This document shows positions 47,372 through 61,455 of a stretch of DNA of 62,071 nt, piece after piece; positions within the stretch are counted from its first letter, which is position 1, and every line of letters starts with the position of its first letter. The translations under genes were made by a program, and so were the position numbers. Origin of the DNA: a virus; the IMG/VR virus record IMGVR_UViG_3300025000_000102, positions 1-62,071 of that record; one strand, given 5' to 3'. The notes below the pieces were generated by a model that was not told the DNA's origin, did not search any database, and saw only the letters and a program-made list of their open reading frames with translations.

Positions 47372-47773
47372 GTGAGAATTCTTAAATTTAGGGCATGGGA
47401 CAAGGAAAAAATGATTGATGGTGATTCGTTAGCCTTTGAGGATTATGCTCCGATTAAAGATTTACTAAGCGGTGAAGGGATAATGCAATTTACTGGCCTC
47501 AAGGATAAAAACGGTGTGGATATTTACGAGGGAGATATCATTAATCTCATTAACGCTGAAGGTGATTCGATAAACGTGGTTTGTGAGTTCGGTACTGCAA
47601 GGAGAAGGGTAATTGACTGCACGGTTGATATAACCGGATTCTATTTTAAACTAGACAATGGCAAAAAGTCTTTCCCTGTCGTTGATAATTATTTAGGGAA
47701 ACACGATTTGGAACTATTCGAGGTCATTGGAAATATCTACGAACACCCCGAGCTAATGGAGGTGCAGGGATGA
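47372..47773 (+). CDS. YopX-family protein
   Basis: 133 residues. Starts RILKFRAWDKEKM and has TGLKDKNGVDIYEGDII, the YopX signature. Small phage protein of unknown role, possibly beta-barrel nucleic-acid binding. GTG start behind GAGGTGG. Confidence 0.93.
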   Translation: MRILKFRAWDKEKMIDGDSLAFEDYAPIKDLLSGEGIMQFTGLKDKNGVDIYEGDIINLINAEGDSINVVCEFGTARRRVIDCTVDITGFYFKLDNGKKSFPVVDNYLGKHDLELFEVIGNIYEHPELMEVQG

Positions 47774-48177
47774 GAGAGATTAAATTACGGGGAAAGGTCA
47801 TTGATACTAGTAGCGTTATCGACAAGAAAAAGGAATTCTCAGAAATGTTGTCAATCGGAGAATGGGCTACTGGACAGATATATTACAAGGATGGCGACTC
47901 CTTCGTTGGGTGCTATGGGGAGTGGTATAAGGTTAACTGTGAAACGGTGGGACAATTTACGGGTCGTCGTGACAAAAACGGAAACGAGTTATGCGATGGA
48001 GATATTTGTAAATACGGAAGCAAGGTTCTGGAGGTTTTCTGGACATCAATAGGAACTGGAAGTTGGTGGTTTAGGAACGGACTTGGTGAGAATGTTAAGA
48101 GAATTGATCTCGATGATCTGATAATTATTGGGAACAAGTGGGATAATCCTGGGCTTCTCAGTGGTACTCCATCATGA
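47770..48177 (+). CDS. YopX-family protein (paralog)
   Basis: 135 residues. TGRRDKNGNELCDGDICK and REIKLRGKVI start match YopX. Overlaps upstream by 4 bases. Tandem duplicates of YopX are common in Firmicute phages. Confidence 0.9.
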   Translation: MREIKLRGKVIDTSSVIDKKKEFSEMLSIGEWATGQIYYKDGDSFVGCYGEWYKVNCETVGQFTGRRDKNGNELCDGDICKYGSKVLEVFWTSIGTGSWWFRNGLGENVKRIDLDDLIIIGNKWDNPGLLSGTPS

Positions 48178-58361: not shown

Positions 58362-59723
58362 ATGAACATACTAAACATCGAAGAATTAACTGTACTAGAG
58401 ATCAAGGAAGATCGTGACTATTTCATAGTGGCGGAGATGGCTTCTCCGCCTTCTTACTGTCCTCACTGTGGCTGTGTGCCCAATCTACAGGGGTTCGGTG
58501 GTAAGACACAACTAATCATGGATACGCCTTCTCATGGTAAGCGTGTAGGTATTTCCTTGCGTCGCAAGCGTTATCGTTGTAAGGAGTGTACTAGGACTTT
58601 CATGGAGCCGTTAAAGTTTGTTGATGAAAGCCGTTCAATGACTAAACGGTTGGTGGAATATATCGAGAAGCAATCCTTAAAGCGTACCTTCACTAGCCTT
58701 AGCGAAGAAATAGGACTTGACGAGAAGACTATCCGCAACGTATTTAAGGACTATGCCAAAGAGCTTGAGAAGCACCTTCACTTCGCCACACCTGTCTGGC
58801 TGGGCATTGACGAAGCCCATCTACTACACAACTTCCGCTGCGTCATATCTAACGTCAAGGATAAGACAATCCTTGAGATGCTAAAGGAACGCAGTAAGCC
58901 AACAGTGATTAGTTACCTTAGCCGTTTGCCGGATAAGGACAGGGTCGAGATAGTGTGTATGGATATGTGGCAACCATACCGGGATGCTGCTAACGCAACA
59001 CTTCCTCATGCCAAGGTAGTGATAGACAAGTTTCATGTGGTTAAAGGAGCCAGCATAGCCCTAGAGGGTATTCGTAAGTCGATACGGCAAGGGCTGACCG
59101 ATAAGCAGCGTAAGACCTTAATGCATGATCGGTTCACTCTCCTTAAACGCAAGTCATCATTAAAACCATTCGAACAAATGAAGTTGGAGTCATGGACAGC
59201 TAACTATCCCGAATTGGGATTGGCATATAAGCTCAAGGAAGACTTCTATGAGATCTTTGACGATAGCAAAGACAGGTATGAAGCGTATGATCGTTACCAG
59301 GCGTGGAAAGGTGAAATGCCATCGTCTATGGTGCCTCATTTTGAGCCTCTAATGACTTCAATGAGGAATTGGGAGCCTGAGATACTTAACTACTTCGAAC
59401 TGCCAAGCAAGCGTGCCACGAACGCTTACACTGAGGCATTAAACGGATTGATCAAGATTGTTAACAGAAATGGTCGTGGGTACTCATTCGATGTCCTTAG
59501 GGCCAAAATACTGTTTACGGAAGGAGTTCAAAAGGTGAAGAGGAATAACTATAAGCACAAGGATACTGATGTTGTTGCTGAGGTTGGCGCCAACATTGCT
59601 GATGGCGACCTAGAGAGTATAGTTCAATACATGTTGGAAAACTTTGATCGGAACCCTGGTGAGACCTTTTCAACACTCACCCAAGATATGACGGATGAAG
59701 AGAAGGAACTGTTTTCAACATGA
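58362..59723 (+). CDS. tnp: ISL3-family transposase
   Basis: 453 residues. N-terminal zinc-finger (CPHCGC...CKECTRTF), then the DDE motif: WLGIDEA (about residue 147), CMDMWQPY (~200) and EALNG (~358). Moves the element by cut and paste. The stop codon lies in the right end repeat. RBS GAGGAGG. Confidence 0.96.
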   Translation: MNILNIEELTVLEIKEDRDYFIVAEMASPPSYCPHCGCVPNLQGFGGKTQLIMDTPSHGKRVGISLRRKRYRCKECTRTFMEPLKFVDESRSMTKRLVEYIEKQSLKRTFTSLSEEIGLDEKTIRNVFKDYAKELEKHLHFATPVWLGIDEAHLLHNFRCVISNVKDKTILEMLKERSKPTVISYLSRLPDKDRVEIVCMDMWQPYRDAANATLPHAKVVIDKFHVVKGASIALEGIRKSIRQGLTDKQRKTLMHDRFTLLKRKSSLKPFEQMKLESWTANYPELGLAYKLKEDFYEIFDDSKDRYEAYDRYQAWKGEMPSSMVPHFEPLMTSMRNWEPEILNYFELPSKRATNAYTEALNGLIKIVNRNGRGYSFDVLRAKILFTEGVQKVKRNNYKHKDTDVVAEVGANIADGDLESIVQYMLENFDRNPGETFSTLTQDMTDEEKELFST

Positions 59724-59737
59724 TAATCCGATTACCC

Positions 59738-59745
59738 ATTATTTT
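59738..59745. repeat. Target duplication ATTATTTT, right copy
   Basis: Exact match to 56783-56790. Marks the right end of the IS insertion. Confidence 0.95.
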
Positions 59746-60363
59746 TTGCATAGCGGAAGAACTAAGAGTTGCGGTTGCTATAATATCGAGCGATTGAAGT
59801 CATACGGGCATTCATGTAAGCAAGATAATCCAAAATCTCATACTAGAATGTATAGCATATGGAATGGCATGAAGGATAGGTGTCTGAATCCTAATAATGA
59901 TAGATACTATGATTATGGGGGTAGAGGGATAACTTTATGCGACAAATGGTTATCATTTGACGGTTTTTACGAGGATATGAAGGAAGGTTACGATGATCTC
60001 CTTACTATCGACAGGATAGAAAACGACAAAGGTTATTCCTTGGATAATTGTAAATGGTCCACGAACGAAGAACAGTCAAACAATAAACGCACTAATCTGA
60101 AATTGACCTTTAACGGAGAAACTAAAACAGCGAAAGAATTTTGCCAAATATTCAATATCAACGAGGATACATTAAGGTCTAGATTAAAGAGAGGGTGGAG
60201 CCTAGAGAGGGCATTAACTTGTAACTCAAAAGTATGTAAATCTCCTCGTGATTTAAGCGAAAAAATTCAATGTGCTTGTGGTTGTGGAGAGGTAATTGGT
60301 AGATTTGATAGGTATGGTAGGGAAAGAAGGTTTATATCTGGTCATAACGGAAGGAAAATGTAG
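59738..60363 (+). pseudogene. HNH/NUMOD endonuclease, 3' part
   Basis: Continues the frame of 56662-56790 as LNYFLHSGRTKSCGC..., then an HNH-type core (GGRGITLCDKWLSFDGFYEDM, LTIDRIENDKGYSLDNCKW), and NUMOD-type helix INEDTLRSRLKRGWSLERA. Without the IS this would be a complete endonuclease of about 250 residues. Confidence 0.88.
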
Positions 60364-60404: not shown

Positions 60405-60773
60405 TTGGATACATCAGAACGAATTTGTGTAGTCGGATCAGGTCAATCATTATCAGATGTGATCAAATATTTAGGCTGCGAACACAACGCGGAGCTAACG
60501 CTTGCCATCGCTAACATCTTGGATCGATCAATATTCAAAGAGATGGCCGATGAATTCATGAAGATGGCCGAGAAGTTTAACTCTTTTCTCGCAGATATGT
60601 TACGAGCTGGATATCCTACTCCCACCAAATGGTACAACCCAATAAACCTACACAACTACCGCAAGATGCACCGCATTACGCCGAGGAGAATTGTTAAGCG
60701 AAGGGATAGGCAGAGTCGAGGGAGTATTTCGTTGTTGAGGGTTGAGCGTGATGACGAGGAGGAGATAGTATGA
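60405..60773 (+). CDS. Hypothetical protein
   Basis: 122 residues, TTG start behind AGGAGGAGGGG. Helical N-terminus and basic C-terminus. Unrecognised. Overlaps the next gene by 4 bases. Confidence 0.6.
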   Translation: MDTSERICVVGSGQSLSDVIKYLGCEHNAELTLAIANILDRSIFKEMADEFMKMAEKFNSFLADMLRAGYPTPTKWYNPINLHNYRKMHRITPRRIVKRRDRQSRGSISLLRVERDDEEEIV

Positions 60774-61174
60774 AATCCCCAAACGAACTCCGTGAATGCC
60801 CACATGGGTGGACGGGGTGCGAACTGTGCGTAAATCTAACGGCCTGTCAAGATGGAACGTATATCCCGGAGTCTGAGCCTGTCGAGCATGAACTGATACC
60901 GGAGCTCACGCCATCCGTCGAAGAACTCACAACCGACTTAGGTGTCGTTATTCCCCATGAGAGAGGGACGTGGTTCGATAAGTTTAGTAAACTTAGCCAT
61001 AACGACAGGCTTAAGGAGATTGCAAGGTATCCGATTCCAAACTTACATTCTGTCGCAGATCCCTATAAGGCTGAACAGGGTGCGATTGTTCCAGGCGGGG
61101 GTAAATCCGGAAGGATCAAGAAAAGCAACAAGGGAACAAAGATACCTCTTGAGCCGTGGACATCCCAAGTATAA
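60770..61174 (+). CDS. Hypothetical protein
   Basis: 134 residues. N-terminal CPHGWTGCELCVNLTAC suggests metal binding. Last early-region gene before the late promoter. Unrecognised. Confidence 0.6.
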   Translation: MKSPNELRECPHGWTGCELCVNLTACQDGTYIPESEPVEHELIPELTPSVEELTTDLGVVIPHERGTWFDKFSKLSHNDRLKEIARYPIPNLHSVADPYKAEQGAIVPGGGKSGRIKKSNKGTKIPLEPWTSQV

Positions 61175-61196
61175 TCCTTCAGGATAACATAGATTG

Positions 61197-61225
61197 TTGA
61201 CAATGGATAGGCTATGAGGTATCAT
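61197..61225 (+). promoter_or_regulatory. Late operon promoter
   Basis: TTGACA, 17 bases, TATCAT: close to the sigma-A consensus. Transcription would begin near 61232 and cover the leader RNA and then HNH, terminase and structural genes across the window edge. Confidence 0.85.
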
Positions 61226-61231
61226 TAGTGG

Positions 61232-61422
61232 TGAGGTTCGGACCCAAAAAGGTGTCTGGGCCTCTTCTTATGCAAGGTAGCACTAATATGCAATGTCGCG
61301 TTGGTACTCAGGATACGAGACCTGATAACTTTTCGGTGGTTTGTTACACACACAACGGACAAAACCGAACCTTGCTAATAATTAAAACCTAAGACACCTC
61401 CAACTCGGAGGTGTCTTTTCTT
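61232..61422 (+). ncRNA. Structured leader RNA with terminator (antitermination candidate)
   Basis: About 190 nt. 5' hairpin GAGG..CCCA/TGGG..CCTC (61233-61264) with loop AGGTGTCT. Then a closing stem GCAAGGT/ACCTTGC (61272-61278, 61369-61375) around hairpin TCAGG/CCTGA (61308-61325) and an 11-bp stem TTCGGT-gg-TTTGT/ACAAA-ACCGAA (61332-61369). Ends in terminator GACACCTCC/GGAGGTGTC plus TTTT. Loop bases 61250-61257 are the exact complement of terminator arm 61392-61399. Confidence 0.75.
61391..61422 (+). terminator. Strong intrinsic terminator before late genes
   Basis: GACACCTCC and GGAGGTGTC, 9-bp perfect stem, 5-base loop, then TTTTCTTATT. Lies between promoter and the late operon, so read-through must be controlled. 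Confidence 0.93.
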
Positions 61423-61455
61423 ATTGCCCCATCTCACTCGAAGGAGGTGACCACC

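What the first reader, a model, noticed from the sequence alone, without database searches (positions are those of the whole stretch)
61197..61455. Structured leader with a possible antitermination switch before the late operon
A near-consensus promoter (TTGACA-17-TATCAT) is followed by ~190 nt that fold into several well-supported stems: closing stem GCAAGGT/ACCTTGC, an 11-bp inner stem, and an intrinsic terminator. The 5' hairpin loop AGGTGTCT (61250-61257) is exactly complementary over 8 nt to AGACACCT (61392-61399), the 5' arm of the terminator. Pairing of the loop would break the terminator. This suggests an RNA-only or protein-assisted antiterminator (like put-type RNA) that switches on packaging and structural genes.
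Basis: partly seen in the sequence, partly recalled or inferred. Interest (0 to 1): 0.87.

Follow-up and report, generated by a model that had tools for sequence, protein, structure and literature searches.

The report
Terminator-gated late promoter leader in phage
Just before its DNA-packaging genes this phage has a strong promoter followed at once by stop signals for transcription, so the late genes can be reached only if something lets RNA polymerase run through the stops; this is the logic of phage lambda's late switch, here with an unrelated neighbouring gene as the likely regulator and a swappable folded RNA, tRNA-like in relatives, in between.

Summary
The structured leader is real: near-consensus promoter (61197-61225), 5' hairpin (61233-61264), three-armed cassette with a 7-bp closing stem (61272-61375) and intrinsic terminator (61391-61417); fold z = -6.4, no Rfam match. 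The proposed loop-to-terminator switch is not supported. AGGTGTCT is mostly stem, not loop; forcing the pairing costs 18.5 kcal/mol; no relative keeps it, including one with an identical terminator arm.

Relatives show a different, consistent design. In 17 of 17 leaders found through the upstream gene (ORF134), a promoter is followed by one or more intrinsic terminators (33 against 3.6 in shuffles; 10 with a U-tract at +28 to +38). In 13 leaders the last one lies 30-42 nt before the first late start codon. Best reading: a lambda pR'-tR'-like late promoter gated by tandem terminators. ORF134, in the position that Q or RinA/Ltr regulators occupy but without detectable similarity to the known families tested, is the likely regulator. 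Whether it antiterminates or activates is inferred.

In 7 related leaders the middle cassette is a tRNA-like RNA belonging to a large Bacillota-phage family (59 distinct acceptor stems, 95.6% paired) missed by ARAGORN and Rfam. The window's cassette sits in that slot and shares the acceptor, but lacks the family's D- and T-arm motifs.

The parts
60770..61174 (+). ORF134: 134-aa protein, Cys4 N-terminus (C10, C17, C20, C26) and a lysine-rich C-terminal tail; candidate late regulator encoded directly upstream of the promoter
   Evidence: Homologues upstream of the same kind of promoter/leader in all 18 loci; L252 was found by the promoter pattern alone and carries it too; no Pfam, PHROG or PDB match
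61184..61190 (+). ATAACAT element just upstream of the -35 box, shared by most relatives; possible regulator site
   Evidence: Aligned promoters; promoter pattern scan
61197..61225 (+). Near-consensus sigma-70/sigma-A promoter TTGACA-17-TATCAT; start expected near 61232
   Evidence: 11 of 12; conserved in L003, L006, L008, L103, L252
61233..61264 (+). Promoter-proximal 5' hairpin (13 bp, loop AAAAA), followed by a U-rich tail (61263-61269); terminator-like
   Evidence: -20.2 kcal/mol, z -4.9; 3 of 13 pairs with both-side changes in 6 relatives; in 10 of 17 leaders a terminator U-tract lies at +28 to +38
61272..61375 (+). Three-armed, cloverleaf-like cassette closed by GCAAGGT/ACCTTGC; occupies the slot of a tRNA-like RNA in relatives
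   Evidence: -31 kcal/mol, z -3.1; closing stem shared with L006, L108, L120, L122; interior unrelated to L006 and lacking D-/T-arm motifs
61391..61417 (+). Intrinsic terminator (11-bp stem) followed by TTTTCTTAT
   Evidence: -18.8 kcal/mol, z -6.2; conserved in L006; U-tract 42 nt before the ORF67 start codon
61456..61659 (+). ORF67, first late gene (C-terminal motif LMRHDSxxRGRGGIRQxRRG), RBS AGGAGG at 61442-61447
   Evidence: PHROG 3928; homologues in L007, L008, L100, L124, L125, L252
61664..62026 (+). HNH endonuclease; followed across the contig ends by terS (41-625) and terL (552-2360)
   Evidence: contiguous order HNH-terS-terL in L009, L010, L011

Best explanation
The region is a terminator-gated late promoter. 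A strong promoter starts transcription near 61232. Polymerase first meets a promoter-proximal terminator-like hairpin (61233-61269) and then a strong intrinsic terminator (61391-61423), so the late genes stay off. When the phage regulator is made, polymerase starting here becomes terminator-resistant and reads through both into ORF67-HNH-terS-terL, the logic of lambda pR'-tR' with Q. The most likely regulator is ORF134, encoded directly upstream. The three-armed cassette between the terminators is a replaceable module, a tRNA-like RNA in several relatives; its inferred role is RNA processing or 5'-end stability of the leader, not a switch. Shown by sequence and comparison: promoter, both hairpins, terminator enrichment, absence of room for a promoter after the last terminator, conserved position of ORF134, replaceable cassette. 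Inferred: actual termination and read-through, the identity of the antiterminator, the role of the cassette.
For: Strong promoter in window and relatives. 17/17 leaders hold at least one intrinsic terminator, 33 in all against a shuffle mean of 3.6 (max 9); 10 have the U-tract at +28..+38 against 0.22. In 13 leaders the last U-tract starts 30-42 nt before the first start codon, with no -35-like box in between, so transcription entering from upstream must pass it. The arrangement persists where nothing lies between promoter and terminator (L007, L008, L109, L110, L125), which argues against a mere ncRNA gene. ORF134 precedes the promoter in every locus, including L252 found by promoter pattern only, and its tail family recurs in L011, found through HNH. 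ORF134 phages G000, G004 and G093 lack the known Bacillota late activators phrog_36, 248 and 2198, which sit in that slot in other phages. 5' hairpin conserved with some covariation.
Against: No termination or read-through has been measured. ORF134 has no detectable similarity to any antiterminator, and its AlphaFold model is poor (mean pLDDT 58.8). The window lacks an obvious QBE-like repeat in the spacer or a -10-like pause element after the start. Known regulators at this position in Staphylococcus phages (RinA/Ltr) are described as promoter activators (PMC13123087). In L006, L120, L122 and L123 the 5' hairpin is kept without a U-tract, so it may do something other than terminate. The 17 leaders are not independent (several near-identical pairs).
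Confidence: 0.55

Rival explanations
1. ORF134 is a RinA/Ltr/ArpU-like DNA-binding activator of the promoter. The terminators only trim basal transcription and block read-through from the early genes, and a fully activated promoter simply overruns them.
For: Size, position and basic tail match the Ltr description (about 130 aa, end of early cluster, directly upstream of the promoter; PMC13123087); conserved ATAACA element just upstream of -35; true activators occupy this slot in other Bacillota phages whose leaders also end in terminators.
Against: The promoter is already near-consensus in the window and most relatives, unlike a promoter that needs an activator; it is followed by up to three terminators, which activation of initiation alone would not overcome; no sequence similarity to activator families.
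Confidence: 0.23
2. The promoter drives a stand-alone small RNA (a tRNA-like RNA in relatives, a cloverleaf-like RNA here) ended by the terminator, and the late genes are expressed by another route.
For: The cassette is structured and replaceable; 7 related leaders carry a tRNA-like RNA, and real tRNAs follow in L006 and, by sequence, L122.
Against: Five relatives have no cassette but keep promoter and terminators; no room for a full promoter between the last terminator and the first late gene in 13 leaders.
Confidence: 0.13
3. An RNA-only switch: the 5' hairpin region pairs with the terminator 5' arm, or acts as a put-like antiterminator RNA.
For: Exact 8-nt complementarity; hairpin at the 5' end, conserved sequence GGAC and some covariation; hairpin kept without U-tract in several relatives.
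Against: The segment is stem, the switch costs 18.5 kcal/mol with pairing probability 0, and the complementarity is unique to the window; put has two adjacent stem-loops (PMC9378689).
Confidence: 0.07

Closest known systems
Lambdoid late regulation, pR'-qut-tR' with Q protein (lambda, phage 21)
   Same: Strong sigma-70 promoter at the head of the late operon, terminator between promoter and late genes, regulator gene immediately upstream; about the same leader length as lambda 6S RNA (194 nt, from general knowledge)
   Different: No Q homologue; no QBE direct repeat or -10-like pause element recognised in the window; two terminators; replaceable structured cassette; Bacillota-type late cluster
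RinA / Ltr / ArpU / Alt late regulators of Bacillota phages
   Different: ORF134 shows no similarity to phrog_36, 248 or 2198; strong promoter followed at once by terminators
HK022 put RNA
   Same: Structured RNA at the 5' end of a transcript followed by terminators
   Different: put is about 70 nt with two adjacent stem-loops in an early transcript; here one terminator-like hairpin, poorly conserved outside close relatives
conAn processive antitermination of pLS20-type plasmids
   Same: Gram-positive host; antitermination expected at the start of a long operon holding terminators
   Different: conAn is a protein plus RNA pair inside a conjugation operon; no homology tested here
tRNA-Leu
   Same: Relatives' cassette keeps acceptor stem, D-arm and T-arm positions of tRNA-Leu
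   Different: Anticodon region replaced by a hypervariable stretch of 28-155 nt, T-loop UGCAAAU; not called by ARAGORN or Rfam; the window's cassette keeps only the closing stem and a cloverleaf-like fold

Membership tests
Lambda-type Q / pR'-tR' antitermination | Strong promoter with intrinsic terminator between it and the late genes | tested here: met
Lambda-type Q / pR'-tR' antitermination | Regulator gene directly upstream of the late promoter | tested here: met
   ORF134 in 18 of 18 loci; most were found through ORF134 itself, so the independent cases are L252 (promoter pattern), L100 and L007 (also found through ORF67) and partly L011 (HNH). That ORF134 is a regulator is inferred
Lambda-type Q / pR'-tR' antitermination | Homologue of a Q protein | tested here: not met
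   No Pfam, PHROG or PDB match for ORF134; poor fold model
Lambda-type Q / pR'-tR' antitermination | QBE direct repeat between -35 and -10 | tested here: inconclusive
   Absent in the window; 8 of 12 of the other promoter class have a second TTGAC in the spacer (QBE definition from PMC6606751)
Lambda-type Q / pR'-tR' antitermination | -10-like pause element in the initial transcribed region | tested here: not met
   No NANNAT-like sequence in the first transcribed bases of the window, by inspection
Lambda-type Q / pR'-tR' antitermination | Factor-dependent terminator read-through | not testable with these tools
   Needs in vitro transcription
RinA/Ltr/ArpU/Alt late regulators | Sequence similarity to the known families | tested here: not met
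   phrog_36, 248, 2198 absent from the window and two other ORF134 records
RinA/Ltr/ArpU/Alt late regulators | About 130 aa, end of early region, directly upstream of late promoter | tested here: met
   description from PMC13123087
HK022 put RNA | About 70 nt with two adjacent stem-loops | tested here: not met
   definition from PMC9378689
HK022 put RNA | Antitermination through beta' zinc-binding domain without protein factor | not testable with these tools
   Needs biochemistry
Transcription attenuator with mutually exclusive antiterminator | Conserved alternative pairing that disrupts the terminator | tested here: not met
Phage tRNA-like RNA family (defined here) | Acceptor stem closing the element | tested here: met
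   GCAAGGT/ACCTTGC, same GCAAGG/CCTTGC as L006, L108, L120
Phage tRNA-like RNA family (defined here) | D-arm TGGCGGAATAGGTAGACG and T-arm TGTAAGGTGCAAATCCTTACC | tested here: not met
   No match in the window with up to 3 mismatches
Rfam families | Match at gathering score | tested here: not met
conAn system of pLS20 | ConAn1 protein and conAn2 RNA homologues | not tested
   Only the description was read (PMC8955417)

The most novel reading that the evidence does not exclude
The leader belongs to a so far undescribed class of late-operon leaders in Bacillota phages, in which a promoter-proximal hairpin and a swappable tRNA-like RNA cassette work with a new regulator family (ORF134) to make polymerase resistant to tandem terminators, so that a tRNA mimic takes part in the late switch.
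Probability: 0.12. Interest if true: 0.85.

Novelty: new variant of a known kind. Interest (0 to 1): 0.55.

Why it matters
Late-gene control is well understood for lambda but much less so for phages of Bacillota outside the staphylococcal and lactococcal models. A recurrent promoter, terminator(s), late-genes layout with a new upstream protein family gives a short, testable read-through unit. The side discovery, a large family of tRNA-like RNAs with strongly covarying acceptor stems and a hypervariable middle that is missed by tRNA finders and Rfam, is a concrete new target in well-known Leuconostoc, Listeria, Enterococcus and Lactobacillus phages.

Tried and rejected
Loop/terminator-arm switch: rejected. 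First hairpin DNA pattern was mis-spelt and found nothing; the corrected one found only the known relatives plus L089, a chance match that lies away from any late leader. BLAST of the leader in GenBank phages: no match. Rfam at E up to 10: only sub-threshold csRNA and Phe_leader hits overlapping the terminator. Window cassette as a true member of the tRNA-like family: rejected on D- and T-arm motifs. Iterating a sigma-70-region-4-like regulator found in L009 over the HNH loci gave no further members. Exact leader pattern over 74 host-order genomes: none; it was too strict, since even the genome holding L103 fails it. Eight paper searches found nothing on a phage tRNA-like leader RNA, but most subscription papers are not held.

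Full report
OBSERVATION. The leader 61232-61422 folds far better than shuffles (-70 against -43.9 +/- 4.1 kcal/mol; z = -6.4). Its parts are each significant: 5' hairpin z = -4.9, three-armed cassette z = -3.1, terminator z = -6.2. The downstream genes are ORF67, HNH and, across the contig ends, terS and terL. The same HNH-terS-terL order is contiguous in L009, L010 and L011. There is no Rfam match.

THE PROPOSED SWITCH. The 8-nt complementarity is exact, but the segment is the 3' strand of the 5' hairpin rather than a loop. Forcing the alternative pairing costs 18.5 kcal/mol, and the ensemble probability is zero. The same octamer is simply a copy of the terminator's own 3' arm (61409-61416). 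In 13 relatives the longest exact complement is 0-6 nt. L006, which has the identical terminator arm, has 5. The switch is therefore best seen as a coincidence.

RELATIVES. Searches with the upstream protein (ORF134), the first late protein, the HNH protein and the promoter gave 18 comparable loci (window, L003 with near-identical copies L004 and L005, L006, L007, L008, L100 with copy L101, L103, L107-L110, L114, L120, L122-L125, L252). L103 is a prophage in Desulfosporosinus sp. PR, which suggests a Desulfosporosinus-like (Bacillota) host range. All show ORF134, then a near-consensus promoter, then a leader. L252 was found by the promoter pattern alone and still carries ORF134, which is an independent check.

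TERMINATORS. A scan of 17 leaders found 33 intrinsic terminators; dinucleotide shuffles gave a mean of 3.6 and a maximum of 9. Every leader has at least one. Ten have the U-tract at +28 to +38, against 0.22 expected. In 13 leaders that end at a clear start codon the last U-tract begins 30-42 nt before it, and none has a -35-like box in between. Anything transcribing into the late genes from upstream must therefore pass a terminator. The layout holds even where no cassette lies between promoter and terminator (L007, L008, L109, L110, L125).

THE 5' HAIRPIN. Among six close relatives the hairpin is kept, with 3 of 13 pairs changed on both sides. Followed by a U-rich tract it is terminator-like in most; in L006, L120, L122 and L123 a hairpin is kept without the tract. 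It may thus also serve as a pause or loading site; this is open.

THE REGULATOR. ORF134 is a 134-aa protein with four conserved cysteines and a lysine-rich tail and no known relatives. Its fold could not be predicted. The known Bacillota late activators phrog_36, 248 and 2198 are absent from three ORF134 phage records. Such activators do occupy the same slot in other phages. Position and size fit the description of Ltr regulators (PMC13123087) and equally the position of Q. In 8 of 12 promoters of the second class a second TTGAC lies inside the spacer, reminiscent of a Q-binding repeat (PMC6606751), but the window lacks it.

THE CASSETTE. In L006, L100, L108, L120, L122, L123 and L124 the slot holds a tRNA-like RNA: acceptor stem, tRNA-Leu-type D-arm, T-arm abutting the acceptor, and a hypervariable stretch instead of the anticodon arm. 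Among 59 distinct acceptors 95.6% of cells pair, against 56% when partners are exchanged between members and 34-43% when slid. Neither ARAGORN nor Rfam recognises the examples tested. In a hand-picked sample, 9 of 10 sit just downstream of a late activator, and several sit just before HNH, terS or other packaging and head genes. It is not confined to late leaders: Enterococcus phage EFDG1 and Lactobacillus phage ATCC 8014-B2 carry it among tRNA genes. The window's own cassette shares the closing stem and 3' flank with L006. Its interior is unrelated and lacks both motifs. It is a cloverleaf-like replacement in the same slot, not a shown member.

MECHANISM. The best-supported account is a lambda-like late switch in which a strong promoter is silenced by tandem terminators until a phage factor, probably ORF134, makes polymerase read through. 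Anatomy and enrichment are shown; termination, read-through and the factor are inferred. A RinA/Ltr-type activator model is the main rival.

LIMITS. The relatives are few and partly near-identical. Most of the 18 loci were found through ORF134, so its constant presence is partly by construction. Some leader ends (L103, L114, L123) were set by hand, and the terminator scan is my own script, not a published predictor. The literature library lacks most subscription papers, so the tRNA-like family may already be described elsewhere.

Noticed in passing
L128-L207, also L006, L100, L108, L120, L122, L123, L124: Large family of phage tRNA-like RNAs: conserved D-arm TGGCGGAATAGGTAGACG and T-arm TGTAAGGTGCAAATCCTTACC, fully covarying acceptor stems, hypervariable 28-155 nt instead of the anticodon arm; not found by ARAGORN or Rfam 15.
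   Followed up: partly
GenBank phages, e.g. L248 (Leuconostoc Ln-9), L249 (Enterococcus EFDG1), L250 (Lactobacillus ATCC 8014-B2), L251 (Lactiplantibacillus H1-Guo): The same T-arm occurs in 93 phage records, mostly of Enterococcus, Listeria, Lactobacillus and Leuconostoc; nearly all listed hits carry no annotation there. Some copies lie inside tRNA clusters.
   Followed up: partly
L166 and L169: Identical variable middle with different acceptor stems (TGACAGG and GATTTGG), as if acceptor and middle evolve separately.
   Followed up: no
L006:5710-5784: A real tRNA-Ile(TAT) gene follows the leader terminator directly; by sequence L122 has a similar one.
   Followed up: no
window 58362-60363: ISL3-family transposase gene followed by an HNH endonuclease, inserted in the region just before ORF134.
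   Followed up: no
window 47372-48177: Two adjacent genes both matching phrog_98 (function unknown), apparently a tandem duplication.
   Followed up: no
promoters of L007, L107, L108, L110, L120, L122, L123, L125: A second TTGAC inside the promoter spacer, about one helical turn after the -35 box; possible regulator-binding repeat.
   Followed up: partly
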